A stretch of 38,819 bases of DNA. It comes from a virus. Shown piece by piece: positions 1,935 to 17,550 of the stretch; the first letter of the stretch is position 1; each line of letters starts with the position of its first letter. Location: positions 1 through 38,819 of IMG/VR virus record IMGVR_UViG_3300034378_000142. The stretch is one strand, 5' to 3'. The notes under the pieces were generated by a model, which had not been told where the DNA came from, did not search any database, and saw nothing but the letters and a program-made list of their open reading frames with translations. Position numbers and translations under genes: made by a program.

Positions 1935-2059
1935 TGTATAACCACGAGAGGATACGACAAGCGCAGCTGAGGATGCATGCAGGCTTCCGGGCATTGTACA
2001 TATCCGGCGCAACCCGTCTTATCAACAGCGAGATAGAGAAGGCAAAGGAAAGACTATGA
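1934..2059 (+). CDS. Very small basic protein (41 residues)
   Basis: The reading frame begins MYNHERIRQAQLRMHAG and ends INSEIEKAKERL. It overlaps the upstream gene by TAATG and the downstream methyltransferase by ATGA, so it fits an overlapping operon with no spare bases. GGAGAGAG lies just before the start. The product is one or two basic amphipathic helices without a recognised motif; it could be a small regulatory or partner protein. Confidence 0.55.
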   Translation: MYNHERIRQAQLRMHAGFRALYISGATRLINSEIEKAKERL

Positions 2060-2787
2060 CAAAGCACCCGGATATTACTATTTGGAAGAAGGGCGTTGGT
2101 CTCATCCGCATGAATGATGGCACTCATCTTTACTGCGGCAACATCATCAATGGAGTCAGGCATTTCCTTCTCACGTATTACCAGAAGGTTTATGACCCAG
2201 AGCCTATCAAGATTCAACCGGATGACATCGTGGTTGACATTGGCGCGTGGGCCGGAATCTTCATGGTGTACGCTGCGACGAAGGCGAAACAAGTCTTCGC
2301 TTCTGAGCCCCTTCCGCAAATGCACGAATTCTGTGCTTTGAACATCAAGGAAAACAAGCTCGACAACGTAGTCCTTTCTCAACTTGGTATCGCGGGCAAA
2401 GACTGCGAGAGAACTTTTCATTTCCTTCCCGGCGATCCCGAAATGGGATACCTCTACGATTCTGACGGGCACACCAGGTTCACTGGCACAATGGGAATTC
2501 AAGTCGTCTCTCTCGATCGCTTTGTCGAGCTTCACAACATTCCTAGGATCGACTTCCTCAAACTCAACTGCGAAGGTGCGGAAGGCGAGATCATACCAGC
2601 AATTTCAGAGGAACTTTGGGGCAGGATTCGCAAAGCTGCTATCCAAATTCATGAGCACCTATCCCCGGTATCCGGCGACGAACTCATTGAAATGTTCCTC
2701 AATCATGGCTTCGCAGTCAACGATCCCAGCAAAGCTCCGGGTGTAAAGGCGCGCTGGACTTACTTCTGGAGGGTAGATGAGGCTTAA
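2056..2787 (+). CDS. FkbM-family SAM-dependent methyltransferase
   Basis: The 243-residue product has the Rossmann methyltransferase core: motif I VVDIGAWAGIF (about residues 59-69), the acidic end of strand 2 (FASEPLPQMHEF), and the region diagnostic of the FkbM family (SLDRFVELHNIPRIDFLK followed by NCEGAEGEII, about 151-180). FkbM proteins mostly O-methylate sugars or other small hydroxyl groups, so a glycan substrate is likely but not shown. Length is normal for the family. The start overlaps the previous stop (ATGA), and the end overlaps the next methyltransferase by 11 bases. With the glycosyltransferases at 21110 it may belong to a virion- or host-glycan modification pathway; that link is inference. 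Confidence 0.85.
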   Translation: MTKHPDITIWKKGVGLIRMNDGTHLYCGNIINGVRHFLLTYYQKVYDPEPIKIQPDDIVVDIGAWAGIFMVYAATKAKQVFASEPLPQMHEFCALNIKENKLDNVVLSQLGIAGKDCERTFHFLPGDPEMGYLYDSDGHTRFTGTMGIQVVSLDRFVELHNIPRIDFLKLNCEGAEGEIIPAISEELWGRIRKAAIQIHEHLSPVSGDELIEMFLNHGFAVNDPSKAPGVKARWTYFWRVDEA

Positions 2788-3355
2788 TCTTGCATCCGGT
2801 CCTTGGGTTGTTCCCGGCTGGACTGCGGTTGATTTGGATCCGCAGTTCAAACCAGACGTGCGTTGTGACCTAACCAAGTTCCCATACCCGTTCCAAGATA
2901 ATTCTGCCGATTTTATCTTCTGTTCTCACATGCTCGAACACTTCACATACCCGCAAGCAAAGGCATTTCTTGCAGAGTGTTTGAGAATTCTCAAGCCTAG
3001 GGGAGCTATTCGTATTTCCGTGCCAGATGTTCAAGACGCGATCACCAAGCTGGTCACTGGCGAGTTCGCAAGCTGGTACGAGAAGCTTATTGAGAAGGGC
3101 GAGATGGTCAATAAACACCCAACTCAGCTCATGGCGTTCACAAAGGAATTTGCGTATCCCGGCCTCGAGGTGGAAGGAAAAACTCTGCATAAGAGTATGT
3201 GGGATCGAATCACTCTCAGCTTGTTCCTGCGAGAAGCCGGATTCAAGGACGTGACGATTACAACTTTCAAGGGTTCAAGATACGAGGAGTTTAAGGCGCC
3301 AGGTCTTGACAATCGCCCAGAGCACTCCCTGTTTATTGAAGGAGAGAAGCCTTGA
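2777..3355 (+). CDS. SAM-dependent methyltransferase (Methyltransf_11-like)
   Basis: The 192-residue product starts RLNLASGPWVVPGWTAVDLD, a compact motif I/II in which the usual GxGxG is shortened to LASG, as in the 'predicted SAM-dependent methyltransferase' group often found in glycan biosynthesis clusters. Strand 4/motif IV follows as ADFIFCSHMLEHF (about residues 48-60), then the helix LAECLRILKPRGAIRISVPD (about 70-89), typical of class I methyltransferases. The substrate cannot be read from sequence. Translation is coupled to both neighbours: the ATG lies inside the upstream gene and the stop forms TGATG with the next start. Confidence 0.8.
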   Translation: MRLNLASGPWVVPGWTAVDLDPQFKPDVRCDLTKFPYPFQDNSADFIFCSHMLEHFTYPQAKAFLAECLRILKPRGAIRISVPDVQDAITKLVTGEFASWYEKLIEKGEMVNKHPTQLMAFTKEFAYPGLEVEGKTLHKSMWDRITLSLFLREAGFKDVTITTFKGSRYEEFKAPGLDNRPEHSLFIEGEKP

Positions 3356-4434
3356 TGTCGGTGGAGTTAAAGCTGCGAGGCAAACAAGTCGCGGATTCAT
3401 CTATCTACTATGTATCCAACTTTCAGCGATACATTGAGCAGCTTAGAAACTGGATTAAGGCCACCGGCTGGGATGAAGAAAGCGTACTTGTCGGACTGAG
3501 GAATGAGGACGGGAGTCTTCTCTTTATCAACGGCGCGAACAGACATGCTGCACTCCGATTGCTTAACGGCGACTTTGATATTGACAGGCTAGAAATTCCG
3601 GTCCTTCTTTTCCAGGTAAAAGATTGCAAGGGTTTTGCAAACACAAGAGGTTTTGGAACTCTCGTTCGGGAAATCTATCGCGAGTGCAGTGAACGCAAGA
3701 TTCTCATTGACCAACGTTGTGTGACTGAATGCTTGGCCCGAGCGATGAGTTATGAGATCCCACCAAAGACACACCTGATAGAACCCGGGCTATTCATAGA
3801 CGCATACCCAAATTTCAAGAGGCACATGGATGATTACTCTTATTTCTGCCTCAAGCGCGGAGGCCGCAAGTGCAGCCACCCGTGGGAAGTTGCAATGGCT
3901 GTGTTCTTCGCACCTCCAGTTGGGCAGAAAGTTCTTGAATGTGGTGGGCGCAACTCTTTCTATGCATCATATGTTACTCGTATGGCTGCCGAGTCACACG
4001 TCATTGACTTCTTCCAGGGGTGGAAAGACTTTGGAGAGGAAGAAGTCTGGTTCCGCCTCTGGCCTAAGGCGGCATATGTTCCCGGCAATCTCATCTGCAG
4101 TCGTCAAGATATGCGAGGACTCGAGTACGAGGACAACACCTTCGATCAGGTAGTCAGTATTTCTGCGGTCGAGCACTCGCCAGATGATGTAAAGAGCCTA
4201 CAAGAACTGGCGAGAGTTTGCAAACCTGGTGGTCAGGTTGTCATAAGCACGGATTTCCATATCGAAGACAACCTGAGAAATCACGCCAGAATCTACTCGC
4301 TTGAAACATTCAAGTCGAGGTTACTCGAGCCATCTGGCTTGGTCATGGATAAGAAGTTCTATCTTACAGTAGAGAAGCCGCACCATGTAGCCGCAGAGTA
4401 CGTTCCGGCCATGGTGTTTTTGCATAAGCCATAG
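3355..4434 (+). CDS. ParB-like domain fused to a class I methyltransferase
   Basis: The 359-residue protein has two parts. Residues about 10-90 resemble the ParB/sulfiredoxin N-terminal fold, with the conserved box FINGANRHAALRLL and following beta strand LEIPVLLFQV. In ParB this region binds CTP; other family members are ATP-using enzymes or nucleases. Residues about 185-355 form a methyltransferase domain: VLECGGRNSFYA (motif I position), FDQVVSISAVEH (motif IV) and LQELARVCKPGGQVVIS. The ATG at 3355 overlaps the previous stop (TGATG) and follows GGAGAG; an in-frame TTG at 3352 is less likely. It closes the three-methyltransferase run. The combination may mean that a nucleotide- or DNA-sensing domain positions the methyltransferase, but this is inference. 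Confidence 0.75.
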   Translation: MSVELKLRGKQVADSSIYYVSNFQRYIEQLRNWIKATGWDEESVLVGLRNEDGSLLFINGANRHAALRLLNGDFDIDRLEIPVLLFQVKDCKGFANTRGFGTLVREIYRECSERKILIDQRCVTECLARAMSYEIPPKTHLIEPGLFIDAYPNFKRHMDDYSYFCLKRGGRKCSHPWEVAMAVFFAPPVGQKVLECGGRNSFYASYVTRMAAESHVIDFFQGWKDFGEEEVWFRLWPKAAYVPGNLICSRQDMRGLEYEDNTFDQVVSISAVEHSPDDVKSLQELARVCKPGGQVVISTDFHIEDNLRNHARIYSLETFKSRLLEPSGLVMDKKFYLTVEKPHHVAAEYVPAMVFLHKP

Positions 4435-4438
4435 GAGG

Positions 4439-4489
4439 ATGTATGGACGACGAGGTGGGCGCAAGAAGAAGGTGAAGACTGATGAGTAG
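4439..4489 (+). CDS. Tiny basic ORF upstream of tnpB-like gene
   Basis: A perfect AGGAGG (4433-4438) lies directly before ATGTATGG. Two very short frames begin here. The one from 4439 encodes MYGRRGGRKKKVKTDE and ends inside the TnpB-like gene; the one from 4443, better spaced from the AGGAGG, encodes only ten residues. They may be a leader peptide, or the 5' stub of a phage gene cut off when the mobile block inserted. Confidence that a stable product is made is low. Confidence 0.3.
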   Translation: MYGRRGGRKKKVKTDE

Positions 4490-5588
4490 GCAGGTCGCAC
4501 ATGGCGTAGCTTGGTTTCCCGAACCGGTAAAGGCTCGGGTGCTGGACCTGATGAAGGCCCAGTCTTCAGCTGCCCGGTCGGCCTACCAAGCCATCCGCAA
4601 ACACGGCTTGAGGGGTAATGCCGTCAAACAGCGCGTGAAGTGTAACTTCATGGCCTTGCTGAACCAGCGATACATCTCAGATGCCGTAAGTCGTGTTGCC
4701 GCCATTAAGGACGAGGGCGTCCTATTCGGTGGTAAGCAAGCGTGGAAGGACATGCAGGCAGGGACGCTGTCCAAAAAAGAATGGCAAGAACGCCGGAACG
4801 GGCAACTCTACTCCCGTGGAGACAGGACGAAGAACGGCAACCCGAACATCCGAGTTGTCGGGGACAAACTGCTGGTGAATGACCCGTCCGGCAGGGGAAA
4901 GTGGTTGGAAGGTCGTCTGTTCATTCCTGCTAAGTGGAAGCCTGTCCTTGACTGTTACGACGTGCGGCTGCTCTATCGTGACGGTAAGTTCGAGGTCAGG
5001 GTGTCGTGGACGGAGCCCGACACGCCGAAGCTGCCGACAGTTGCCGGGGCGATAGGCGTGGATTGTAACCCGGATGGTGTTGCCGTAGTGGAGGTGACTG
5101 GAGACGGCAACCTGCAACGTCATCAGTACGAGCAGGAGCAACGTATTCAGTTTGCTGGGCGTGGGAAGCGGGATTACGACATCAAGCAGTTGGCTGTCCG
5201 AGTGGTGGATACCGCCAAGGAAGCACGAAAGCCGCTGGTTGTTGAAAAGTTAAACTTCAGTCCGGGTAGTCGAAAGAAAGGCTATCGCAAGTTCCGAAGA
5301 ACGAAGTCACAGTTCGTATATCGGCAGATGTTGGATGCCATCAAGTCAAGAGCAACAAGGGAGGGCGTGCCGCTCATTGAAGTACATCCCGCCTTCACCT
5401 CGATACTTGGAAATCTGAAGTATGCTGCTCCATATAGATTGAACAGGCACACGGCGGCGGCGTTGGTAATCGGCAGACGTGGAATGGGATTACTGGAGAG
5501 ACAAGACTTTACGGTTACGCAGGACGAGTCAGATAGCGAGAAACTGCACCTTGACAGGAATAGCAGGTGTGGTATAGTGGCGCCATGA
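4482..5588 (+). CDS. TnpB-related protein (IS200/IS605 OrfB / IS1341 type)
   Basis: The 368-residue protein matches the TnpB-related group: an N-terminal helical region, a middle beta-rich part (WLEGRLFIPAKWKPV, VRLLYRDGKFEVRVSW) and a RuvC-like C-terminal half. RuvC-I is AIGVDCNPDG with the catalytic Asp at about residue 194; RuvC-II is PLVVEKLNF with Glu at about 255. The third motif, usually D-x-N-A-A, is here LNRHTAAALVIGRRG (about 319-334), so the canonical Asp is replaced, probably by His as in relatives that read HxAAALVIxRR. There is no CxxC zinc finger between motifs II and III. TnpB enzymes are RNA-guided DNA nucleases of transposons; whether this variant still cuts is unclear. The stop overlaps the next ATG. 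Confidence 0.8.
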   Translation: MSRQVAHGVAWFPEPVKARVLDLMKAQSSAARSAYQAIRKHGLRGNAVKQRVKCNFMALLNQRYISDAVSRVAAIKDEGVLFGGKQAWKDMQAGTLSKKEWQERRNGQLYSRGDRTKNGNPNIRVVGDKLLVNDPSGRGKWLEGRLFIPAKWKPVLDCYDVRLLYRDGKFEVRVSWTEPDTPKLPTVAGAIGVDCNPDGVAVVEVTGDGNLQRHQYEQEQRIQFAGRGKRDYDIKQLAVRVVDTAKEARKPLVVEKLNFSPGSRKKGYRKFRRTKSQFVYRQMLDAIKSRATREGVPLIEVHPAFTSILGNLKYAAPYRLNRHTAAALVIGRRGMGLLERQDFTVTQDESDSEKLHLDRNSRCGIVAP

Positions 5589-6448
5589 AAACTCAATACG
5601 GATACATGCTGGACCTTGGGTTCTTCAATGAACCATCACCGGAGAGAGATTATTTCTTGGGCTTGTGGTGGGCGGATGGTTGCCTGCAAGGTAACTCTGT
5701 ACGGTTGTCCGCAACGAGAAAAGACAAGCCTCATTTGCTTCGCACAGTTCGGCCTTTCTCTTCACATCCTGTTTACGATTACGATTATGAGTCAACTGTC
5801 TGCTGGCGAGCATGCTCTGTTGAGCTTGCTGCCAAGATTCGAGAGTTGGGCGGAACAGAGCGGAAGTCACGGGTCATTGATTGGCCGCATTGGCTGACCT
5901 ATTCTGACGCTTCGCATTTTGTTCGAGGCGTGTTTGACGGCGACGGTTTTGCCAGAATAACCTGTGGGACTCTTGTCGTTGGGTTCTCCTCTGGTAGCGA
6001 CACTTTCGTCAACGAGCTTCAGGCGTGCGTCAACCAGATTCCTGGCGTCAAGTCTCGTCTGGAACATAGGCCATCTACCACTGTAGAGATACGAGGGAAA
6101 CAGGCCAACTTTTCTGATAGTTATCAACTTCGGCTTAGTGGCCCTTCGGCTGAGAAGTTGGGGGAGTGGATGTATCGGGATGCTGGGGAATTGGCGCTAG
6201 GGAGGAAGCAAGAGATTTTTCAAGAACGGGAACGACGAAGAGCAGCGACCATCTCGAAGAAAATGGCACACAGACAAGAGAGAGAGAAGCTAGCGGCCCG
6301 CGTCAATGCGCTCCGTGGGGACGGGATGTTTTGTAAGGACATCGCCGTCCTTCTGAATGATGAAGGACTTGTGAACTCTCGCGGCGGGGATTGGTCGGTG
6401 CCCTGGACGCCTGCGTCGGTGTCAGAGCTTTCTACGAGGGGGTGGTGA
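5585..6448 (+). CDS. Free-standing LAGLIDADG homing endonuclease with C-terminal DNA-binding tail
   Basis: The 287-residue protein has two LAGLIDADG motifs: YFLGLWWADGCL (about residues 22-33) and FVRGVFDGDGFA (about 111-122), each keeping the acidic metal-binding residue, so a monomeric active enzyme is plausible. Between them are the expected beta strands. The C-terminus (about 230-287) has VNALRGDGMFCKDIAVLLND, then EGLVNSRGG and a Trp-containing end; this resembles the helix-turn-helix tail of serine recombinases and could add DNA specificity. The ATG overlaps the tnpB-like stop (ATGA), implying coupled translation. Not being inside an intein or obvious intron, it probably mobilises the surrounding block. 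Confidence 0.85.
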   Translation: MKTQYGYMLDLGFFNEPSPERDYFLGLWWADGCLQGNSVRLSATRKDKPHLLRTVRPFSSHPVYDYDYESTVCWRACSVELAAKIRELGGTERKSRVIDWPHWLTYSDASHFVRGVFDGDGFARITCGTLVVGFSSGSDTFVNELQACVNQIPGVKSRLEHRPSTTVEIRGKQANFSDSYQLRLSGPSAEKLGEWMYRDAGELALGRKQEIFQERERRRAATISKKMAHRQEREKLAARVNALRGDGMFCKDIAVLLNDEGLVNSRGGDWSVPWTPASVSELSTRGW

Positions 6449-6708
6449 TGGTTGAAGGAAAAGGTTTCAAGCACACCCTGACTCCAAAAGCGTACTCGTT
6501 TCTTCAGGCGTGTGGCCTGAAGGAGAAACCAGCCGGGCTCACAGCCCCGGTGCTGGCAGCAGGTTCAAGACCTGCCACAGGCACTAGCGTAGGTGAGATT
6601 CCTACGGGTGAGACCTGCTCTAAAACTGGTCGAGCAGGCAGAGTGAATAACTCTCAGGGAGAAGAAAGGCTCCCTTCGGGCTTGAAGAGATTTTTCCAAG
6701 TTCCGTAA
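6448..6708 (+). CDS. Small ORF coinciding with the structured region (possibly a displaced TnpB C-terminus)
   Basis: An 86-codon frame starts with ATGA overlapping the endonuclease stop and runs to the TAA at 6706-6708. The start of the product (MVEGKGFKHTLTPKAYSFLQ) is protein-like, but the rest follows the hairpins at 6515-6687 and is rich in G, T, A, P and R. In TnpB systems the guide RNA often overlaps the 3' end of the tnpB frame. This frame may therefore be the former C-terminus of the TnpB-like protein, separated by insertion of the endonuclease gene, and its translation may be incidental. Confidence 0.3.
   Translation: MVEGKGFKHTLTPKAYSFLQACGLKEKPAGLTAPVLAAGSRPATGTSVGEIPTGETCSKTGRAGRVNNSQGEERLPSGLKRFFQVP
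6515..6687 (+). ncRNA. Candidate structured RNA (omega-RNA-like or unknown)
   Basis: The stretch folds by eye into closely packed helices: GCCTG 6515-6519 with CAGGC 6578-6582, enclosing CCAGC 6529-6533/GCTGG 6552-6556 (capped by GGGCT/AGCCC 6535-6547) and GCAGG 6559-6563/CCTGC 6571-6575 with the T-loop-like TTCAAGA. Then follow CGTAGG 6588-6593/CCTACG 6601-6606, CCTGCTC 6614-6620/GAGCAGG 6632-6638, GAGT/ACTC 6641-6653, AGGGAG 6656-6661/CTCCCT 6670-6675 and CTTC/GAAG 6674-6687. GCAGG and CCTGC copies could also pair in alternative or pseudoknotted ways. Position downstream of a TnpB-like gene fits an omega RNA (reRNA). A group I intron core was considered but its conserved P7 signature is not clear. 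Confidence 0.6.
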
Positions 6709-6718
6709 ACCAGGTCTA

Positions 6719-7000
6719 ATGGAAAAGTGTGAACAGTTGGCTGCGTTAGAAAAGCGGGTGGAGCTTATCGAGAAGTATCTTATCTCGAACGTATCCGCTT
6801 CTTTCAGACTGATTGAGAGGTCTGGCATGGTCAAACCGATTCCGAAACCAACCGACTTCCCTGCGAGTGGCCGGGTTGATGGAGACGTTCCAAAACCAAG
6901 AGACCATGATACTCTGGAGATAGAGCATGGGAAAGAGACCGATCTGCGAGTACCAGGAGAGAGTGGAGACCGGGAAGGGAAGGAGTGTTCCGATCTGTAA
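6719..7000 (+). CDS. Small hypothetical protein with N-terminal coiled coil
   Basis: The 93-residue product begins MEKCEQLAALEKRVELIEKY, a short heptad-patterned helix, followed by a proline-rich linker (MVKPIPKPTDFPASGR) and a charged, disordered-looking C-terminus. No family is recognised. The upstream ribosome site is weak (AGGTC). Its 3' end overlaps the next gene by 74 bases, and the hydrophilic C-terminal third may be shaped by that overlap. It is the first phage gene after the mobile block. Confidence 0.5.
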   Translation: MEKCEQLAALEKRVELIEKYLISNVSASFRLIERSGMVKPIPKPTDFPASGRVDGDVPKPRDHDTLEIEHGKETDLRVPGESGDREGKECSDL

Positions 7001-7662: not shown

Positions 7663-7894
7663 AGGTCTCCTTAAAGAGCTAGAACGAGCCTGCGGAGACT
7701 CGAATTCTCCAAGCAATATCGCTCTAGCGTTTGGCATTCTCATTGATAAAGGGAAGTTCGGGTCACAAGAGAAAGAGGACGAAGAGTCTGCGTCACCTGT
7801 AGAAAACGATCAAGAGCGAAAAGCTCTTTACGAGGAACTGGAGCCAGGAATTGTCGAGAAAAGTAAGGGTGGACGGCAAAGCGGAGATGACTAG
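7514..7894 (+). CDS. Putative terminase small subunit-like protein
   Basis: The 126-residue product contains a repeated motif, NPYAIAQSYGILVDKV (about residues 20-35) and SPSNIALAFGILIDKG (about 66-81), flanking a basic amphipathic helix (KKLARKIEETIKGLLKELER). The pattern A-x-x-x-G-I-L-x-D-K is typical of terminase small subunits, which bind the packaging site and deliver DNA to the large subunit. The C-terminus is acidic, as expected for a contact surface. The ATG at 7514 has GAGG upstream; longer in-frame starts are possible. It sits immediately before the large terminase, overlapping it slightly, which supports the assignment. The 148-base overlap with the previous gene is unusually long. 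Confidence 0.55.
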   Translation: MLELKLLENMLRAATKSKNPYAIAQSYGILVDKVAKVPKKLARKIEETIKGLLKELERACGDSNSPSNIALAFGILIDKGKFGSQEKEDEESASPVENDQERKALYEELEPGIVEKSKGGRQSGDD

Positions 7895-10523
7895 GCGGCA
7901 GAAGCGACGCCGCTTATTCTATTCCGAACCCAGGACCAGAGAAGAACTTTGGTTATGGACAAAGCTTCACTTCGGGATAGAACTCACGCGCGAGTCTGTC
8001 TGCGCCCACCACGATTCACAGCTTGACTATCTCTGGCATACAACTCAAGAACTTGGCGACGCTTATGTACTTGCTTGTCGAAATGGAGGCAAGACTCAGC
8101 TCGAGGCGGCAGCGGCTGTCTATGACTCGACATTTCACGCGCCATGCACAACGATCTGCGTTGCTGGCTGTCTCCACCCAAACACTCCTGTCCTAACTCC
8201 AGAAGGATTTAAGCCGATAGCCTATATCCGCGTAGGCGATTATGTCTACGACGGCAAGGAATGGCGGCTTGTAAAAGGCATGACTGAGCGGCCTTCTGTA
8301 GAGCACTTAAAAATTTCGTTCGTGGGACTGCCTCCTCTTTTTCTGACGCATCATCACCATTCTCTGCGGGTGAGCGGGGTGGAGTGTCCGATACCGGGAC
8401 GGACCTCCCCCCGCGTTTGTTCTGCAAACGTAAACTGTGCCTATCATCGGAGGCGATTTAAGTGCAAGGGTCGTGGTAAAGTTGAGGAAGTTCCGGCAAG
8501 CGAACTGAGAGTTGGTGACGCGATTGTTTATCCACTGGACTATATAAATAACCGAAATGGGTTTAAGCCGAACGTATCGCCTATGCTCCAGGGTTTAATC
8601 TTCGGCTCTCATGTCAAGGCGGATAAACACCTTGTAACTTTTTACAAGAGATATTCGGTGTCACGTGAATACGATCGTGCAGTCCTCGATCAGATCAGGC
8701 GAGTGGTTGCAGAGGAAATTTCATTGCGTCCTGTGCGCCAAGAGCCTGCAGGTAAAGGATTTGCGATTCGCTATGAAAGGTCGTTCTTCAAAGGGTATAA
8801 GTTCGATGGCAATCTTCCATACAACTTCTACTTCTGGAGCAAGAGCAACAAAGACGAGTTCTTGGCTGGAGTTTTTCAAGGGACAAAGTTCAATATTGCG
8901 AACACACCTTCATGGAACAAGGCATTCTCGACGACAAGAAATACTGAATTCGCCCTGAATCTTTATTCACTCGTAGCAAGTGCAAGACCCAGGGTTGACC
9001 ACTGGGACAAAGATGATATGATGAGACTGGTGTTTGCGGACTCGTCAATCCCAAAATTGAAAAGGAAAGTTGCCGCTAGGTTCGCCATGTTCGAACCGGT
9101 GAAGGAAAGGGCTGGCGGTCAAGCTTTGCTCTCTGTCAGAGGGACTCAGTCTCTTGGCAACCGAATAAAATCGGTGGAGGAAGTTGGGCCGTCAGTCCCC
9201 TTCATTGATATTGAAGTTGAAGGTGGCGAGCATTTCTTGACGTTGTGGGGCATCGTTCACAACTCGAAACTGCAGGCTGGCCATGCCTATGCCTACATCA
9301 AGCAAATCTATAATCCTCGAAAGAATGGGATTGCGAAAGAGGAGTGTAATGTCTGCACGAAGGAAGCCACCGAGATAAACAACGGAAGCGCTATTCAGAT
9401 TATCTCGTCATCAGAAGAGGCAGCCGGGGGCTTCCACGTTGACCATATTCGCATTGACCAGATTGATGATATGAAGCAGGGTGTATTCGAGACGCTTCAA
9501 TTCGACATTAACGCCGCTTCAGATCAACATGTTCAAGTTGATATGGTAGGGACGTGGGACAAGCTTGGCGGCTTGTACGACAAGGTTCTTGCAAAGGCAT
9601 TAAGCGAACAACAGACAATCTTCCGTTGGTGCATTCTTGACGTGCTTGAGCCCTGCAAGGATCGCATGTGTTCAAATTGCGATTTATCCGATTGCTGTGG
9701 GGGTGTTGCGAAAGATAAGTTCGAGGGCTTCTTAAAGATAGACAAGGCAATCAAGATTCGCAAGAGGCTTATCTCGGACGCAAAGTGGGGAACACAAGCT
9801 CTCCTGAAGACGCCTCGGCCAATGGACGCTCTCATTCCAAAATTCAATGACACTCATCCTTTTGTCCAGCCACTTGCATTTAGACCCGCACTTGAGACAT
9901 ATCGAGGTTTCGACTGGGCAAAATGTCCATCGTGCGTCTGGGTTCAATTCAATGAACACGAGGATAGGCTGTATGTAATAGATGAGTACATGGGTAAGCC
10001 TGGACAGGGAGCCTTAATCACAGGGCCAGCTATTCTTGCAAAAGAGGGTCGGCATGGTTATCGTAATATCTCTGCGAGTTACGGTGACCCTTCCGGCGCT
10101 TCTTGGATCAATGACTTCGTGACTCTGGGCATTCCTGTTATCTCTCTCGTAATTGATAAGGATACGAGGATCGCGGTCCTCGATAAGCTTCTCCAAATAC
10201 GTGAAGACGGGAAGCCTGGAATCATTATTGACCCGCGCTGCACAAACCTTAGATCACAGTTACTTCAATACGACGTGCGTTGCAGAATGAAGCAGAAAGG
10301 CGCACCCCAAGATGATATGGTAGATGCGCTGCTTTATCTTCTTGGCGGACTAAGATTCAGGTTGAAGTTCAAGGATGATAATCCTCCTGGCACTATTTCA
10401 CTAGCTGAGTCGGAAGAACATGAAGCTATTGAGAAGTATTCGGCACCAGTAGAACAATACCTTGAGCTTGGCAAGGCACTCGTAGAGAAAGGTAAAACAG
10501 ACTTCAATAGAATAATTCCATAG
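7887..10523 (+). CDS. terL: Terminase large subunit, interrupted by an intein
   Basis: This is the DNA-packaging motor. After removal of the intein (8169-9263) the protein is about 513 residues. The ATPase domain has Walker A LACRNGGKT just before the intein, the next strand ICVAG/SKLQAGHAYAY split by it, and Walker B at HIRIDQIDDM, where the usual D-E pair reads D-Q. MVGTWD fits the coupling motif. The nuclease domain has the three RNase H-like acidic sites: YRGFDWA, YGDPSG and DDMVDALLYL. A cysteine cluster (CKDRMCSNCDLSDCC) may bind zinc. The ATG at 7887 overlaps the upstream gene; GTG 7869 and TTG 7851 are alternative starts. The gene is followed by the portal gene, as usual. Confidence 0.92.
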   Translation: MTRRQKRRRLFYSEPRTREELWLWTKLHFGIELTRESVCAHHDSQLDYLWHTTQELGDAYVLACRNGGKTQLEAAAAVYDSTFHAPCTTICVAGCLHPNTPVLTPEGFKPIAYIRVGDYVYDGKEWRLVKGMTERPSVEHLKISFVGLPPLFLTHHHHSLRVSGVECPIPGRTSPRVCSANVNCAYHRRRFKCKGRGKVEEVPASELRVGDAIVYPLDYINNRNGFKPNVSPMLQGLIFGSHVKADKHLVTFYKRYSVSREYDRAVLDQIRRVVAEEISLRPVRQEPAGKGFAIRYERSFFKGYKFDGNLPYNFYFWSKSNKDEFLAGVFQGTKFNIANTPSWNKAFSTTRNTEFALNLYSLVASARPRVDHWDKDDMMRLVFADSSIPKLKRKVAARFAMFEPVKERAGGQALLSVRGTQSLGNRIKSVEEVGPSVPFIDIEVEGGEHFLTLWGIVHNSKLQAGHAYAYIKQIYNPRKNGIAKEECNVCTKEATEINNGSAIQIISSSEEAAGGFHVDHIRIDQIDDMKQGVFETLQFDINAASDQHVQVDMVGTWDKLGGLYDKVLAKALSEQQTIFRWCILDVLEPCKDRMCSNCDLSDCCGGVAKDKFEGFLKIDKAIKIRKRLISDAKWGTQALLKTPRPMDALIPKFNDTHPFVQPLAFRPALETYRGFDWAKCPSCVWVQFNEHEDRLYVIDEYMGKPGQGALITGPAILAKEGRHGYRNISASYGDPSGASWINDFVTLGIPVISLVIDKDTRIAVLDKLLQIREDGKPGIIIDPRCTNLRSQLLQYDVRCRMKQKGAPQDDMVDALLYLLGGLRFRLKFKDDNPPGTISLAESEEHEAIEKYSAPVEQYLELGKALVEKGKTDFNRIIP
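8169..9263 (+). other. Intein (365 residues) in terminase, with a degenerate LAGLIDADG domain
   Basis: The element is an in-frame protein insertion beginning with Cys (CLHPNTPVLTPEGFKPI, block A) and ending GIVHN, with Ser as first extein residue, a standard splice junction. Block B is LTHHHHSLRV, and the C-terminal block F is FIDIEVEGGEHFLTLWG. All residues needed for splicing (Cys1, block-B His, His-Asn, Ser+1) are visible. The central domain has two LAGLIDADG-like helices, MLQGLIFGSHVKAD and FLAGVFQGTKFN, but the catalytic acidic positions are changed (G-S-H and Q-G-T). The endonuclease is therefore probably dead while splicing should still occur. Insertion is just after the Walker A helix, in the most conserved part of the host protein. 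Confidence 0.92.
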
Positions 10524-10532
10524 GAGTGAGCT

Positions 10533-12059
10533 ATGGCGAAAGATGATGCACTTTTGGAAGCCGTGAGATGGGAAGTCGAGAAGTACGTTGGCGGCAGAAG
10601 AATGACTGACTTGGACGTTCAAGTCCAAAACAACCTCTTGACAGATAGGCCGAATATCGATCTTTTCAACACCATGCTGCTTGATCCCGGAGTATCGTTT
10701 CCGCTTCACATGTTGAAGCTGCCTATCTCGAGGTCAAGATTTGTTTACCAGAATCAAGACGCCGATATACAAGCGTTTGTGGAAGGCGAACTCAAGGAAC
10801 TCCATCACACTCTGCGTTTCGAGTCTCTGACTGCGCTCGAGCATGGGTTCTCCAGCTTCGAGCGAAGATATGAGATACGGGATGCAATGACTCATTACAA
10901 AGAGTTCATTCACCTCAACCCGAAGTACATATGGATAAGGATAGACCCGAAGACAAAAGGGTTTAATGGGCTTCAACAGCGATACCGTGGTAACACGATC
11001 GATCTGAGGCCAGAGAAGTCTTATGTTTTCTCGCATGAACAGTATTTCTCGAACCTTTATGGCCGATCGCAGATAAACTATGCCTATGTTCCGTGGTTGC
11101 TGGATAAGGAGTTCTATCGTTATCACGGCCTAGCGCTACAGGAGTTCGGACTTCAAACGCTTGTTGGCCGCGCTCCGGAAGGCAACCGAACGATCAACAT
11201 GGGCGAGGCTGGCGATAAAACCATAAGCAACCTCGAATTCATTAAGATGATAGGAGAGACCGTTCGAAGTCGGACTGTTGTAACCTATCCTGCCGGAGAA
11301 GGTTGGGATCTTGGTACTCTGTTCAAGTCAATGACTGGCTGGGACTTTAATAAGGATCATGATTTCCTCGACAACAAGAAGGCTCTTGCGATACTTCTTC
11401 CGCCAGAACTCTGGCGTGGTGGTGGTGGTTCTTATGCCAAGTCAAGAGTGCAGTCATACTGGTTCGAGCAGACTATCGGCGCTATACTCGACGAGCTGAG
11501 CCGTGCAATCATGAGGTATGTTGTTAAGCCGATAATTCGCTTGAACTTTTGGGATGGAAGGGAAGAACCGCCTTACGGAACTGTCAGTTGCGAACCTCCA
11601 TCGATGGAATACCAGCAATTTGTCGAGAAGCTGATTCTCAAAACTAACAAACCGCAACCGATTGATTGGAACGCGCTTCTAAAGATCATGCGTATCCCTC
11701 TCAAAACTGACGTTGAAGAAGTCGGGCTCGAGGAAATGCCTACAACAGCAAAGACACTTGAGGACTTCTGCCGCAGAGCGTTTACAAGCGGCGTGGAGTT
11801 TGCAAAGGACGAACTCGCATGTCCAGACCTTTACATTCCAATTCCAGAAGAGAAGAAGAAACAAGAGTTCCGCGCAGAAGCTGGGCGGCTACAATGGCTT
11901 GTCAAAAAAATGCCAAGCCCGAGAAAAGTTCTCGTAACGGTCTATGACAGAATAAGGCTCCAAGGCAGAGACTTCGCTCATGAGTTTTTCTGTAAGACCG
12001 TGGAGGATGGAGGGTATCTCAAGGAGAATAGGGAGAAGATCAATGCAGCAATCTCTTAA
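10533..12059 (+). CDS. Portal protein
   Basis: The 508-residue protein directly follows the large terminase and has portal-type features: an N-terminal region MLLDPGVSFPLHMLKLPISR, a stem/wing region with EHGFSSFERRYEIRD and NPKYIWIRID, and a glycine-rich turn, LPPELWRGGGGSYAKSRVQ, often seen before the long C-terminal helix of portals of the DUF935 (Mu gp29-like) type. Twelve copies would form the vertex channel for DNA and bind terminase and the connector. Length is normal. AGGAGTGAGC precedes the ATG. It overlaps the next gene by 17 bases. The order terminase-portal-protease-capsid supports the call; the exact portal family is less certain. Confidence 0.8.
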   Translation: MAKDDALLEAVRWEVEKYVGGRRMTDLDVQVQNNLLTDRPNIDLFNTMLLDPGVSFPLHMLKLPISRSRFVYQNQDADIQAFVEGELKELHHTLRFESLTALEHGFSSFERRYEIRDAMTHYKEFIHLNPKYIWIRIDPKTKGFNGLQQRYRGNTIDLRPEKSYVFSHEQYFSNLYGRSQINYAYVPWLLDKEFYRYHGLALQEFGLQTLVGRAPEGNRTINMGEAGDKTISNLEFIKMIGETVRSRTVVTYPAGEGWDLGTLFKSMTGWDFNKDHDFLDNKKALAILLPPELWRGGGGSYAKSRVQSYWFEQTIGAILDELSRAIMRYVVKPIIRLNFWDGREEPPYGTVSCEPPSMEYQQFVEKLILKTNKPQPIDWNALLKIMRIPLKTDVEEVGLEEMPTTAKTLEDFCRRAFTSGVEFAKDELACPDLYIPIPEEKKKQEFRAEAGRLQWLVKKMPSPRKVLVTVYDRIRLQGRDFAHEFFCKTVEDGGYLKENREKINAAIS

Positions 12060-15000
12060 AATTGACGTTCCACCTGAGAAGTGGGTGAACGAGGATTGGA
12101 GAATCGCCCTGGCGTGGTATTGCTCAGAGAAACCTCCTCGTCCTAAGGCAGAGATAAGAGACATCCTCAAGAAGATGGCGAAGGAATTTATCAAGAGGGG
12201 CGACTTCACATTTCACCCAGAGACTTATTCCGAATGCTCTCGAAAGATTGCCACGGAGATTTTTCAAGAGGTCGTTGAAGATGGTATGTATCTTGTGCCC
12301 CCACATGGGGAGATGGTCTGGAACGGCAGGAAGTCTGCGGTTGTCAAGTCCAAGCCATTCGAGTCTCTACAAAAGACCTTTACATTCCTTTGTTCCGGCA
12401 AGCGGTGTTATGGAATGATCCGCTTCAAGGAGCCGAAGGAAATTACCATTGACGAGTTCGAGAGGCTTTATAAGAAGCACAGGATCTCCGAGAAGGAAAG
12501 AGAAACCTGGTGGCCCCGCAAGGAGAAACTCTATCTGTACGAAGTGCGGGATTTCTTCCGATTCAAGTCTCCTTTCATGGTTAAAGTCCCACAAGGAGTC
12601 CAGACTTTCATAAAGAATGTCAAGCGGTATTTCTCCTCCCTAGAGGCAACCGAACACGACAATATCTTCGATGTGTTGAATCTGCCGACTATCTCAGAGG
12701 CACTCGAGGCGCTGAACGAGATAGCTTCTGACTCGCATGAAGTGATTGCCTACTCTATTGCAGAGATGGCAGCGGAAGCTGAACTCAGATTGCTCACTCC
12801 ACTCGAGGACGAAACGCCGGTTGGACTTGTTATTCGCCATGCCTTAATTCACGACCAAGCTGAAGACTCCATTTATGTCAATGGCGAAACTTCTGAAACA
12901 GTTAAAGCCGAACATGCTCGAGTGGTATCTGAAATGCGCTCCCGGGGAATGGAGCATAGGATCGAAACGAGTCTTGACTACGATTCCCCGCTTCTCGATT
13001 CAACTCCAATCTTGCGTATCAATGCTCTTGGAACTCGAGCTGATGTCGAGGAATCTAATAGCAAACACAAGAAGCATACTGGCGTGCTTCTCAAGTCCAG
13101 AGCGAAGAAAGTCCTTCTCGATTGCGGAGAACCAGAATTCTTGGGCAAGAACCCGAACATTGTTGTCTTGTCACACTTTCACCCAGACCACTTTTGTTGG
13201 GCGAAGCCTGAGCATGAGCCTGGAATCTATGAGTATGAGGAACTACCGGACTTCTTGGAAGAAGGCGACCCTCATGAACTCATGCGAAGCCCAATCCGCA
13301 CTTACGGTTCTACGATCTTCAGGCACATTATGCTCTTTGAGCATCCAGAGTGCCAGGTCTATGTTGAGCCATTCTGCGGCTCAGCCAGCGTTCTCTTTGC
13401 TAGGAAGCCGGTCAAGACCGAGGTTATCAATGACCTCAACGACGACACAATCTTCCAGTTGCGCTTTATCAAGAAGCTTAACAAAACCACCATGGCGTAC
13501 CTGAAGAAAATGAACTGGAAGGGAAGCCATGAAACTTGGAAGCGGTGTCGAGAAGTACTCAAGAAAAAGCAGTTCAAAAGTGAAGCCCACCGTTTCTATG
13601 TCCTGAAGTATCTCTCCCGCTACTCATTCCATTGGTCAGGCTCGGACCTAGGGGGACCTCGAGTCGAAGGCGAATCGTCCTACAATCCAAGTGTACTCGA
13701 GCGTGCGCGTGACAGGCTCAGGAACGTCAAGATAATGCATGGCGATTACTGGGAAGCCATGGGCAACTACGACGGCAAGAACACATTTATGTTCATTGAC
13801 CCGCCGTTCAAGGAACACGCCAAAGGTTCATACAAGAACGAAGGACTCGATTGGGATGTTTACTTCAAGCGACTCAAGGGAATGAAGTGCCAATTCATCG
13901 CTCTCAACAGTAATGACAAGAGGTCTCGTCAAGTTTACCGCGAAATGAAACTGCAAATGAGAGCCTATCCGTTCCCTGGTGGGCTTTACAGACCCGTTCA
14001 GAAGAAGAGCAAGTATCTCTTGGGCGCAAACTATCCTCTCAAGACTCGCAAGGGAAAAAGCGTCGGGACTATCCGCGCCTCAAAGCCAAGCTCGAAAGTC
14101 GCAATGGACGCAGAGCCGGTTGAAGTTCAGGACTTCAAAGATGAAGCTCCAGATACATTGTTTATCGCTTCTCCTTTCTCGAAGTGCGAAGTTTCGGACA
14201 AGGCGGAAAAGCAGGGCTTCAATATCGAGTTTGCTGAAGAGTACGAGTTCGACGCTTTCAAAATGAGAGCGTACCCAGTCAAGCATTCAACAATCTGCCC
14301 TGCAGTCGCATGGAAGATATGGATCGGCGGCAAGACCGTTCTCTTTGTGCCGGACATACTGGAGATGGATAAGAAGGTTCTGGAAGGAGTTGACATTTAC
14401 ATTGGAGACGGCGCCACCTATACACGCGATATTAAGCGGAAGTCCGGTAAAGAACCGATAGGTCACATGAGCGTGAAGAAGCAGATAGCCATGTGCAAAG
14501 AGGCTGGCATTGAGAATATCTATTTCGTTCATGTTGGCAAGGAGATAATCGAGAAGCCAAAGCTGGACGACCCGCTCGAGGTGCAAGTTAGTGAAGCTGG
14601 AGCAGAGGTTCTCGACGATGGACAGACAAAGGAGGAGAAGGTCAAGCTGGTTGGATTAAAGGAAGTGCTCGAGTTGCTTCCGCAGAAATTTTCTACGATA
14701 GATAAGTACCATCTTGTCGGGTCTCTTCCAGTTCGCGGTAGAGGACTTGACGTTGATATTGTAGAGAGAGGAGATGAGGACGACGCTGCTCGTCATCGAA
14801 TCACTCAGGTTCTTGGTCCTATCATGGAGCGCATCTCCTTCCACAATGATAGTCGTGGGCCAATGGGTTCACACATTCCGCTTTACCGGCGCACTTATAC
14901 TAGAATAGATACAGAATATGTGGCCATGTCAGGTGCGTATATTGATGAAAATAGATGGGACGACTTCGCGCTTACCGGAAAACCTCTCAAAGAGGCAATG

Positions 15001-17550
15001 GATTCGAGGCGTCAAGACAAAATCGTTCCAGGTAGATTCTTCGCTCTCCAGAAGACTCACGCTGGCTATCACAAGCGGGAAGCTTTCGAGCCGAAGGAGG
15101 CTCTTGAAATGCTCCGCAAGGATAAGTTCCCGTATGCCGGTGAGGAGAAGATAGACGGAATGCACATTCAGTTTCAACGATATAATGAGGTTCTCCGGCT
15201 ATTTTCCGAAGATGGAAAAGAAGTAAACCTTAGCCAGATTCCAGAGATAGCGAAAGCCCTCAAGGCAATGCCACCAGCAATCGGAATTGCGGAGATAGCT
15301 GGCTGGGTTCCTAAAGAAGCAGCCGTGAAAGCCGGTCTTGTTCCTGAAGATCGCCCTGCTAGAGACGGCAAGGTTCACCTTGGTCGAGGCGACGTGACAG
15401 GGTATCTGCATTCAAAGAAGTACAATCCTCTTATTGCGAAAAGTCTAGTCCTGCACGTTTACGATTTACTCTGGATGAAGCAGGATAAAGAGCTCTACAA
15501 GAAGCCGCTCGAGGACAGGATTGCTGCCAGAGATAAGTTCTTTGGCAGAAAAGGGTTTGTTCAAGCTCTAGAAACAACCGTCCTGAAAAACGAGAAGGAC
15601 GTGGTTGCCTTTTGGAAGAAGATTACCCAGCTTCCAAGCGCGGAAGGAATCATGCTCAAGCCAATGGGTGATAGATATGTTCTCTGGCATTCTGGAGGTT
15701 ACTGGGTCAAGCTCAAGACGTTATACGAGCTGAGCGCAAAGATTCTGAAAGTCAATAAGGTCAAGGACAGTCCAAGTATCGTAAACGCAACTTGCGCTAT
15801 CACCGAGAATGGCAAGTACGTTTATGTTGGCAAGACCTTCAATACAAAGCTGCCGTTGCGACCCGGGCAGATAATCGAGGTTCGCTTCCAGAACATTTCT
15901 CGATACACCGATCCTCGCACCGGCAAGAAGTGGTACAACTGGTTCAGGCCGACTATAGTTGATATTCGCAAGGAGAAGAAAGCTCCTGATTCTACCGAGA
16001 TTGCGGAGAAGCTTGTAAGAGCAACTAACGGTGAGGTTGGCGAAAAGCCGATGCCTCGAATCGCAAAGGAATCTCTTGGCATCCTCGAGTTCAATGACTT
16101 GACCCACGGTGAAGTTCTTCAGTTCACCAGGGAGCTTGACAATGAGCTTTCTCTTGGGATAGAGGATTTGGTCGAGGTTGCGAACGAACCTCCTATGCCA
16201 AAGGAGTGGAGAGACAAAATAAAGACTTGGAGTGGCAAGAGTCGTAGCGCAATTGCGAAGACATCTCCTTCCGATCTGCCGGAACACTTCTTCGTTATGC
16301 AGAGTCATTACCGTGGCAAGAGCAATCATGGTGACTTCAGGGTTAAGATGGATGACTCCTTTGACGGGCGTACTCTTTTGACCCAGCAGGCTGGTGTCAT
16401 TACCGAACCTGTTACAACTCTCGAAGAAGCCGATATGTGGTCGAAGAAATACCACGGTCCTAACGCCTCGCAATATACAAAGTTCTATCCGGGTATGCCA
16501 CCAAACAAGGGAATCATGGTTGAAGAAAAAGAGAACGGCCCTCTCGTCTGGTTGACCATGGTGAAAGAGATTGTTCCACCTGGCTCGGTAGGCGCAACAA
16601 AGGAATTCCCTGGAGTCTTTTGGGGAGAAGATTGGGGAATCGCCTTCAAAACTGTTGACAAGCCTTGGTTTACTGAGTGGTGGATATTCGGCAAATGGTT
16701 CAAGTCTGCACGCTTGGTAGACCGAATGCTACCCACTACTCGCACCGAGAAGGCGGGCAGACTGCCGACTTATTGGAGGGCTCACATAGCTTCCGAAAAG
16801 TCACCTCCTTATATTTTCTCCCCATCTTTTTTCAAGAATACCGAGTGGGTCCCAGAGGACTCTGCGCTGCCTCCAAACTGGGAAGCCGCTGTGCCTGAGA
16901 AGCTTAGATGGTGGGGGAAAGGGCTTCCTCAAGCCAAACGACTCGATCTCATAAAAGCAACCTTCAATTATTTTGTCGAAGAAAAATTCTTGAAGGGGCG
17001 CAAAATTTCGCTTGACAAGGGTGAATTCGACATTACACTTCGGGTTGATAAGCGTTCATACGTACTGCACCGTATCTGGTGGCGTGGGCCTGCCCATGTA
17101 AGAAACGTTGCAGTAAGCGTTTGGCGGCTTAGAATAGATGGTAAGGGGAAAGACCAGAAAGGTCTCCTTACTTTCGAGTTTGAGTCTGACCCTACTCGGG
17201 ATTCCGAGAAAGGATACGCCGGACTCAAAAGCATTTCAAGGACTAAGCCACCCAAAGGCGAGAAGCCTGAAGACTGGATAAAGTACGAAGGCGACTTGCC
17301 ACCGAGTCACCCAGAAAATCCCACAAAGAAGCTGGCTGCTCATGTAGTTAAGGAAGACTCGGGAACCATAAGTGTCATTGCCGACTCAGAAGATTTCATG
17401 TCTGGCAATTTCAATGGCACAAAACACGGACTCAAAGGTTATTACGTTTTCAAGCGCGAATCGCCGGAATCAGACTTCTGGCTTTTCAAGCGTTCACCGA
17501 AGGGGGAGCATAATGAGCGTGATCGGGAAAGCGTGGAAAACGCCTCTTGA
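12043..17550 (+). CDS. Giant multidomain DNA-processing protein: MBL fold / D12 methylase / nucleotidyltransferase / DNA ligase / LigD-type phosphoesterase
   Basis: The open frame is uninterrupted for 1835 residues; GGGAGAAG precedes the ATG. Domains in order: 1-345 unrecognised; 350-400 first half of a metallo-beta-lactamase fold with VVLSHFHPDHF; 415-675 D12-class N6-adenine methylase (YVEPFCGSASVLF, EVINDLND, MFIDPPF); 700-850 second half of the MBL fold (VKHST, TVLFVPD, GHMSVKKQIA, YFVHVG); 885-965 nucleotidyltransferase-like (HLVGSLPVRGRGLDVDIV); 1030-1310 ATP-dependent DNA ligase with nucleotidyl Lys in EEKIDGM, EIAGWV, AEGIMLKP, YWVKLK and an OB fold; 1410-1560 LigD phosphoesterase-like (FFVMQSHYRGKSNHGDFR); 1660-1830 a second, degenerate copy (YVLHRIWWRGP, WRLRID). 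It lies between portal and protease and overlaps both. Repair or circularisation of virion DNA is inferred. Confidence 0.85.
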   Translation: MQQSLKIDVPPEKWVNEDWRIALAWYCSEKPPRPKAEIRDILKKMAKEFIKRGDFTFHPETYSECSRKIATEIFQEVVEDGMYLVPPHGEMVWNGRKSAVVKSKPFESLQKTFTFLCSGKRCYGMIRFKEPKEITIDEFERLYKKHRISEKERETWWPRKEKLYLYEVRDFFRFKSPFMVKVPQGVQTFIKNVKRYFSSLEATEHDNIFDVLNLPTISEALEALNEIASDSHEVIAYSIAEMAAEAELRLLTPLEDETPVGLVIRHALIHDQAEDSIYVNGETSETVKAEHARVVSEMRSRGMEHRIETSLDYDSPLLDSTPILRINALGTRADVEESNSKHKKHTGVLLKSRAKKVLLDCGEPEFLGKNPNIVVLSHFHPDHFCWAKPEHEPGIYEYEELPDFLEEGDPHELMRSPIRTYGSTIFRHIMLFEHPECQVYVEPFCGSASVLFARKPVKTEVINDLNDDTIFQLRFIKKLNKTTMAYLKKMNWKGSHETWKRCREVLKKKQFKSEAHRFYVLKYLSRYSFHWSGSDLGGPRVEGESSYNPSVLERARDRLRNVKIMHGDYWEAMGNYDGKNTFMFIDPPFKEHAKGSYKNEGLDWDVYFKRLKGMKCQFIALNSNDKRSRQVYREMKLQMRAYPFPGGLYRPVQKKSKYLLGANYPLKTRKGKSVGTIRASKPSSKVAMDAEPVEVQDFKDEAPDTLFIASPFSKCEVSDKAEKQGFNIEFAEEYEFDAFKMRAYPVKHSTICPAVAWKIWIGGKTVLFVPDILEMDKKVLEGVDIYIGDGATYTRDIKRKSGKEPIGHMSVKKQIAMCKEAGIENIYFVHVGKEIIEKPKLDDPLEVQVSEAGAEVLDDGQTKEEKVKLVGLKEVLELLPQKFSTIDKYHLVGSLPVRGRGLDVDIVERGDEDDAARHRITQVLGPIMERISFHNDSRGPMGSHIPLYRRTYTRIDTEYVAMSGAYIDENRWDDFALTGKPLKEAMDSRRQDKIVPGRFFALQKTHAGYHKREAFEPKEALEMLRKDKFPYAGEEKIDGMHIQFQRYNEVLRLFSEDGKEVNLSQIPEIAKALKAMPPAIGIAEIAGWVPKEAAVKAGLVPEDRPARDGKVHLGRGDVTGYLHSKKYNPLIAKSLVLHVYDLLWMKQDKELYKKPLEDRIAARDKFFGRKGFVQALETTVLKNEKDVVAFWKKITQLPSAEGIMLKPMGDRYVLWHSGGYWVKLKTLYELSAKILKVNKVKDSPSIVNATCAITENGKYVYVGKTFNTKLPLRPGQIIEVRFQNISRYTDPRTGKKWYNWFRPTIVDIRKEKKAPDSTEIAEKLVRATNGEVGEKPMPRIAKESLGILEFNDLTHGEVLQFTRELDNELSLGIEDLVEVANEPPMPKEWRDKIKTWSGKSRSAIAKTSPSDLPEHFFVMQSHYRGKSNHGDFRVKMDDSFDGRTLLTQQAGVITEPVTTLEEADMWSKKYHGPNASQYTKFYPGMPPNKGIMVEEKENGPLVWLTMVKEIVPPGSVGATKEFPGVFWGEDWGIAFKTVDKPWFTEWWIFGKWFKSARLVDRMLPTTRTEKAGRLPTYWRAHIASEKSPPYIFSPSFFKNTEWVPEDSALPPNWEAAVPEKLRWWGKGLPQAKRLDLIKATFNYFVEEKFLKGRKISLDKGEFDITLRVDKRSYVLHRIWWRGPAHVRNVAVSVWRLRIDGKGKDQKGLLTFEFESDPTRDSEKGYAGLKSISRTKPPKGEKPEDWIKYEGDLPPSHPENPTKKLAAHVVKEDSGTISVIADSEDFMSGNFNGTKHGLKGYYVFKRESPESDFWLFKRSPKGEHNERDRESVENAS

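What the first reader, a model, noticed from the sequence alone, without database searches (positions are those of the whole stretch)
4435..6710. TnpB-like gene, LAGLIDADG gene and structured RNA in one block
A TnpB relative, a homing endonuclease overlapping it by ATGA, and a densely hairpinned 3' stretch sit together. If the stretch is a TnpB guide RNA, an endonuclease gene has wedged between nuclease and its RNA, making an element with two DNA-cutting routes (RNA-guided and site-specific). This would be a new kind of composite homing element.
Basis: partly seen in the sequence, partly recalled or inferred. Interest (0 to 1): 0.8.

Follow-up and report, generated by a model that had tools for sequence, protein, structure and literature searches.

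The report
Homing gene nested in TnpB element
A virus from metagenome data carries an RNA-guided DNA-cutting gene (TnpB) with its guide RNA, left over from an IS607 transposon, and a second, unrelated DNA-cutting homing gene has inserted itself exactly between the two, so one element appears to hold two separate ways of spreading itself.

Summary
The block is real and is one element, window 4439-6714. It is a remnant of an IS607 transposon. It keeps the last 16 codons of the serine transposase TnpA (4439-4489), TnpB (4482-5588), and a guide RNA scaffold (6498-6714) ending ACCAGG. A LAGLIDADG homing endonuclease gene (5585-6448) sits inside tnpB, between the RuvC core and the RNA.

Five related elements, all lacking the homing gene, carry the same RNA at the end of tnpB (in one, of a tnpB remnant). 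Three show the uninterrupted insertion site, fixing the insert at about 5555-6451 between TTGA copies. L006 still has the full IS607 tnpA.

The RNA is strongly supported: 210 of 212 helix cells pair across six elements, 24 of 43 pair columns show compensatory change, and a relative left out of the model scores E=6e-19. TnpB is under purifying selection (dN/dS 0.07-0.10), not relaxed on the window branch.

"Two cutting routes" remains inferred: neither enzyme was assayed, and TnpB's third RuvC residue is His, not Asp. No paper on a homing gene inside tnpB was found in the library searched. New variant of a known kind.

The parts
4433..4438 (+). AGGAGG at the left junction: inferred target-adjacent motif and original ribosome-binding site of the gene at 6719; ends with the GG expected for IS607 insertion
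   Evidence: GGAG stands at the left boundary in all six elements; GG target of IS607 (PMC6188088); TAM 5'-AGGAG of ISFba1 TnpB (PMC11061315). Inferred.
4439..4489 (+). C-terminal tip of IS607 serine transposase TnpA (MYGRRGGRKKKVKTDE*), rest of tnpA deleted; overlaps the tnpB start
   Evidence: identical to the last 16 residues of the L006 TnpA, which is MerR + Resolvase by Pfam
4482..5588 (+). TnpB, 368 aa, RuvC residues Asp (GVDCNP), Glu (VVEKLN), His (LNRHTAAAL); natural C-terminal tail cut short by the insert
   Evidence: dN/dS 0.07-0.10
5551..5578 (+). promoter-like TTGACA-16-TATAGT (11 of 12) just before the homing gene's ATG
   Evidence: consensus match only
5555..6451 (+). inserted segment, about 897 bp, flanked by TTGA at 5551-5554 and 6452-6455
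   Evidence: uninterrupted site in L006, L086 and L002; the second T is G in L002
5585..6448 (+). LAGLIDADG homing endonuclease gene, two motifs (LGLWWADG, VRGVFDGDG) and a C-terminal recombinase-like segment
   Evidence: LAGLIDADG_3 4e-7; phrog_4645 3e-23; C-terminal 74 aa weakly match PF07508 Recombinase, E=0.015
6452..6497 (+). displaced 3' part of the tnpB frame (EGKGFKHTLTPKAYS), now outside the tnpB ORF
   Evidence: aligned with L006, L086, L002
6498..6714 (+). guide RNA scaffold: eight helices (arms starting at 6502/6516, 6535/6543, 6550/6580, 6559/6570, 6588/6601, 6615/6632, 6641/6650, 6658/6670) and pseudoknot CTGGT 6626-6630 with ACCAG 6709-6713
   Evidence: pseudoknot arms are invariant, so it is not supported by covariation
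6715..6734 (+). inferred 20-nt guide: flanking sequence TCTAATGGAAAAGTGTGAAC, start of the next gene (ATG at 6719)
   Evidence: by position after the right end, as in ISDra2 and ISFba1 (PMC8612924, PMC11061315); not measured

Best explanation
An IS607 transposon inserted into a phage genome between the ribosome-binding site (AGGAGG) and the start codon of the gene at 6719, then lost its transposase except the last 16 codons. What remains is a stand-alone TnpB with its guide RNA. The RNA ends at the element's right end, so its guide is the first about 20 bases of the flank, and TnpB should cut AGGAG-TCTAATGG sites in co-infecting phages that lack the element; repair then copies the element in (RNA-guided homing). 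Later a free-standing LAGLIDADG homing gene inserted into tnpB after the RuvC core and before the RNA, a place that spares both. It has a likely promoter of its own, is also coupled to tnpB by ATGA, and should cut uninterrupted copies of tnpB at the TTGA site. Shown: order, ancestry, insertion point, conserved RNA, purifying selection on TnpB. Inferred: guide, target motif, cutting by either enzyme, homing.
For: Five relatives have tnpB (or its tip, L096) next to the same RNA and no homing gene. L006 has the complete IS607 arrangement, TnpA 2394-3008 and TnpB 3001-4419. The window retains the identical TnpA tip. RNA: 210/212 paired against 62.5% when arms are swapped between sequences; held-out L088 E=5.7e-19, 72.8 bits. 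Six weaker hits (E 0.001-0.33) all lie on the same strand just downstream of the matched core of more distant tnpB genes. Ends: GGAG left and CCAGG right in all six; joining the flanks of the window, L086 and L002 gives a ribosome-binding site directly before a start codon. TnpB dN/dS 0.07-0.10; window branch 57 synonymous against 28 nonsynonymous changes, like the other branches. Both LAGLIDADG motifs are present.
Against: No element-free relative of this phage was found, so the ends are inferred from reconstructed junctions. GGAG at the left edge could simply be the ribosome-binding site for tnpB in the four elements without tnpA. The third RuvC residue is His in the window, L006, L086 and L002 but Asp in nearly all more distant members inspected, so cutting is not assured. 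Only one copy with the homing gene is known, in a metagenome assembly whose reads could not be checked.
Confidence: 0.72

Rival explanations
1. TnpB in this viral clade no longer cuts but binds DNA guided by its RNA and represses genes (as TldR proteins do); the homing gene alone provides mobility.
For: Third RuvC residue Asp to His in the clade; the 45% relative L088 keeps the RNA but has lost the first Asp (GVTIGP) and has Gln at the third position, so it is probably dead. Phage-encoded TldR are known (PMC13418256).
Against: First Asp and Glu are kept in the window, L006, L086 and L002; His at this position is used by Thermus thermophilus RuvC and by Cas9 (own knowledge). L006 still sits in a complete IS607. 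The window's own locus has CCAGG, not AGGAG, before the guide match, so it would not be expected to repress its neighbour.
Confidence: 0.2
2. The homing gene is a plain parasite that has broken the TnpB system, which is now decaying.
For: It truncates the tnpB reading frame and separates it from the RNA by about 0.9 kb.
Against: Truncation lies after the RuvC core; the tail in relatives is not frame-conserved (L006 is shifted against L086 in the RNA); no relaxed selection on the window branch; all RNA helices intact in the window. The insertion may be too young for decay to show.
Confidence: 0.2
3. The 3' structured stretch is a group I intron or other self-splicing RNA belonging to the homing gene.
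For: Relatives of this homing enzyme in phages are often annotated as intron-encoded or lie inside a split DNA polymerase gene.
Against: The RNA is present in five relatives without the homing gene; no Rfam intron match; the insert has about 30 bases before and 3 bases after the ORF, no room for an intron.
Confidence: 0.02
4. The three-part block is an assembly chimera.
For: Single metagenomic copy; reads not available.
Against: Both sides of the insert are the same tnpB (about 80% to L006 and L086 on either side) interrupted at one homologous point with a TTGA repeat.
Confidence: 0.04

Closest known systems
IS607-family TnpB with guide RNA (ISFba1 and RAGATH-18 RNA; PMC11061315)
   Same: IS607 origin, TnpB followed by a scaffold RNA with pseudoknot and right-end guide, AGGAG-like motif at the insertion point
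   Different: No RAGATH-18 match; different TnpB subfamily (TIGR01765/01766 type, His as third RuvC residue); tnpA deleted; interrupted by a homing gene
ISDra2 TnpB and reRNA (PMC8612924)
   Same: RNA from the 3' end of tnpB and right end, guide taken from the flank
   Different: IS200/IS605 family, TTGAT motif, different RNA
TnpB-like genes of Thermus phages phiLo and Lalka
   Same: 34-35% identical stand-alone TnpB in phages with a long C-terminal extension
   Different: Asp as third RuvC residue; no match to this RNA model; no homing gene
LAGLIDADG enzymes of phages (phrog_4645, Brevibacillus phage Jenst endonuclease)
   Same: Same enzyme family, 30% identity over 73%
   Different: Listed relatives lie in or beside DNA polymerase or recA genes; here no intron, inserted in tnpB, extra recombinase-like C-terminus
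IStrons (group I intron joined to an insertion sequence; PMC4227781)
   Same: A second selfish element joined to an IS element
   Different: Partner is a homing endonuclease gene rather than a ribozyme; sits between TnpB core and guide RNA

Membership tests
IS607 transposon | serine recombinase TnpA with MerR-type HTH | tested here: not met
   only the last 16 codons remain in the window; complete in relatives L006 and L096. The window copy is an IS607 derivative, not a complete IS607
IS607 transposon | GG at both ends, insertion at GG without duplication | tested here: inconclusive
   GGAGG left and CCAGG right in the window, L086, L006, L096; left side only AGGAG in L002 and L088; no empty site found
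TnpB (OMEGA) RNA-guided nuclease | TnpB/Cas12f-type fold with RuvC domain | tested here: met
   (whole-chain TM-scores low, 0.3-0.4; RuvC resolvases about 0.6 by target length)
TnpB (OMEGA) RNA-guided nuclease | RuvC D-E-D triad | tested here: not met
   D-E-H in the window clade; Asp at the third place in nearly all more distant members inspected. His is used by some RuvC-fold enzymes, so activity stays open; filed as TnpB-derived, not as a proven nuclease
TnpB (OMEGA) RNA-guided nuclease | conserved structured RNA at the 3' end of tnpB ending at the right end | tested here: met
TnpB (OMEGA) RNA-guided nuclease | RNA-guided cutting next to a TAM | not testable with these tools
   needs biochemistry
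RAGATH-18 / IS605-orfB guide RNAs of Rfam | match to the Rfam model | tested here: not met
   no match at gathering threshold; at E up to 10 only four chance-level hits to other families
LAGLIDADG homing endonuclease | two LAGLIDADG motifs in one chain | tested here: met
   LGLWWADG and VRGVFDGDG read from the sequence; LAGLIDADG_3 4e-7 over residues 117-197, phrog_4645 over residues 6-220
LAGLIDADG homing endonuclease | inserted at its own cutting site | tested here: inconclusive
   insertion point and 4-base TTGA repeat known, cutting not assayed
Group I intron / IStron | group I intron RNA | tested here: not met
   no Rfam match; RNA stays in relatives without the homing gene
TldR (dead TnpB repressor) | loss of RuvC catalytic residues | tested here: inconclusive
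   Asp and Glu kept, third residue His in the window; clear loss in L088 only

The most novel reading that the evidence does not exclude
A working two-nuclease composite: RNA-guided TnpB drives the whole element into element-free phages at a gene start, while the nested LAGLIDADG enzyme drives itself into uninterrupted tnpB copies, and the guide RNA is still made from a transcript that spans the insertion.
Probability: 0.35. Interest if true: 0.75.

Novelty: new variant of a known kind. Interest (0 to 1): 0.6.

Why it matters
It is a concrete case of a protein-only homing gene invading an RNA-guided one, with the uninterrupted forms and the full IS607 ancestor at hand, so competition or cooperation between the two kinds of homing can be tested directly. 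It also supplies a covarying viral TnpB guide RNA that is in no Rfam family, a TnpB clade with His in place of the third Asp, and a simple possible rule (target motif equal to the ribosome-binding site) for why such elements sit between ribosome-binding site and start codon.

Tried and rejected
Group I intron or IStron: rejected, no Rfam match and no room in the insert. Known guide-RNA families of Rfam: no match. Other copies of the homing gene in IMG/VR: none by close search. More copies of the RNA in IMG/VR by pattern: only those already found. Element-free relatives of this phage or of L086 through terminase, portal, capsid and flank searches: none found. A wider search of genomes around the L006 bin: no other close copy. 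Structure of the homing enzyme from its single sequence: too poor to use, pLDDT 41. Literature on a homing gene in tnpB: none among the searched papers; most subscription papers are not in that library.

Full report
What is there. The window is a 38.8-kb virus record of IMG/VR with phage-type genes. The block contains a 368-aa TnpB-like ORF (4482-5588) and a LAGLIDADG ORF (5585-6448) overlapping by ATGA, followed by a hairpin-rich stretch to about 6714. TnpB: TIGR01766 1.7e-11, and guided_TnpB 1e-12, the latter below its own cut-off. The AlphaFold model (pLDDT 80) finds AsCas12f, ISDra2 TnpB, ISFba1 TnpB and several RuvC resolvases in the PDB. Homing gene: LAGLIDADG_3 4e-7 and phrog_4645 3e-23.

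Relatives. Scans found L006 (87% identical TnpB; a phage-like contig, judging by its ORFs, binned with an Altiarchaeales genome), L086 (85%; between a terminase gene and a gene that I read as portal by its place, without a Pfam match), L002 (57%; 109-kb virus) and L088 (45%; 164-kb virus), plus L096, an IS607 with tnpB deleted to its first codons but the RNA kept. None has the homing gene. L006 and L096 carry upstream a MerR-Resolvase protein, the IS607 transposase TnpA. The window still holds the last 16 residues of that protein, MYGRRGGRKKKVKTDE, overlapping the tnpB start, so the block is a transposase-less IS607 derivative.

The insertion. DNA alignment puts the homing gene at one point of the tnpB frame. 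The L006 sequence CTGCACC-TTGA-AGGAAAAGGTTTC is split in the window into CACCTTGA, then 897 bp, then TTGAAGGAAAAGG. The same uninterrupted site is present in L086 and, with one difference, L002. The insert holds most of a promoter-like TTGACA-16-TATAGT whose first box spans the junction, the ORF, and three further bases. There is no intron. The point lies about 35 codons after the third RuvC residue and about 50 bases before the first RNA helix, so both the nuclease core and the RNA are spared. Relatives' tnpB frames read on into the RNA, but the frame is not conserved there (L006 is shifted against L086), which points to selection on RNA rather than protein.

The RNA. Eight helices in the same order and with near-constant loops were read from the window, L006, L086 and L002, four of them also from L096 and L088. 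Of 212 cells 210 pair, 24 of 43 pair columns have compensatory change, and pairing the 5' arm of one sequence with the 3' arm of another drops to 62.5%. Two cautions: the arms were chosen by eye, and in that script the position printed for the 5' arm of helix D in L088 is a wrong copy of the same word. A covariance model from five elements finds L088, which was left out, at E=5.7e-19, and gives six weak hits just downstream of the matched core of thermophile tnpB genes, all on the right strand. A conserved CTGGT in the loop of helix E can pair with ACCAG at the very end; pseudoknots are known in such RNAs (PMC11061315), but here both arms are invariant, so covariation neither supports nor opposes it. 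Rfam has no match.

Ends and likely target. All six elements end in ACCAGG on the right, and GGAG stands on the left boundary, in four of them GGAGG. IS607 uses GG at its ends and GG targets (PMC6188088), and the TAM of the IS607 TnpB ISFba1 is AGGAG (PMC11061315). Joining the flanks gives AGGAGG-TCTA-ATG in the window, AGGAGG-AAA-ATG in L086 and AGGAG-ATAGAGC-ATG in L002: a ribosome-binding site and start codon each time. This is inference from joined flanks; no element-free genome was found, and in the four elements without tnpA the GGAG may simply serve tnpB.

Function. TnpB is under purifying selection (dN/dS 0.07-0.10), and the window branch shows no relaxation (57 synonymous, 28 nonsynonymous). 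Its RuvC residues are Asp, Glu, His; the third is Asp in nearly all more distant members inspected. His at this place is used by Thermus RuvC and by Cas9 (own knowledge), so cutting is plausible but open. L088 has lost the first Asp and is probably dead. The most likely mechanism is nested homing: TnpB with its RNA cuts element-free relatives at the target start codon, and the LAGLIDADG enzyme cuts uninterrupted tnpB. TnpB is known to process its own mRNA into the guide RNA (PMC10278001), and the insertion keeps all parts on one strand in one possible transcript. Neither activity is shown here.

Verdict. Observation confirmed; interpretation supported for anatomy, open for activity. A new variant of a known kind (TnpB-guide RNA element), with a nested homing gene for which no precedent was found in the papers searched.

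Noticed in passing
L088:1052-2314: A TnpB 45% identical to the window's keeps the guide RNA but has lost the first RuvC Asp and has Gln at the third position; a probable dead, TldR-like TnpB in a 164-kb virus, its frame running through the RNA into the next gene.
   Followed up: partly
L096:2235-3229: IS607 element with intact tnpA and guide RNA but tnpB reduced to its first codons, a guide-RNA-only IS607.
   Followed up: partly
window 7851-10523: 890-aa ORF, terminase-like in its C-terminal half (weak match), interrupted by an intein-like stretch (weak Intein_splicing match).
   Followed up: no
window 11980-17550: 1856-aa protein in which a D12 adenine methyltransferase lies between two matches to metallo-beta-lactamase domains, followed by an ATP-dependent DNA ligase domain.
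   Followed up: no
window 2056-4434: Three methyltransferase genes in a row, the last ending directly at the element's left edge.
   Followed up: no
window 21110-24283: 1057-aa protein with several glycosyltransferase domains between phage structural-type genes.
   Followed up: no
L002:5855-6042: Small ribbon-helix-helix-like ORF with a promoter-like TTGACA-17-TATAAT ending 5 bases before its ATG, overlapping the start of tnpB.
   Followed up: no
L004:4417-4506: A two-copy repeat annotated as CRISPR lies directly after the TnpB gene of Thermus phage Lalka27a.
   Followed up: no
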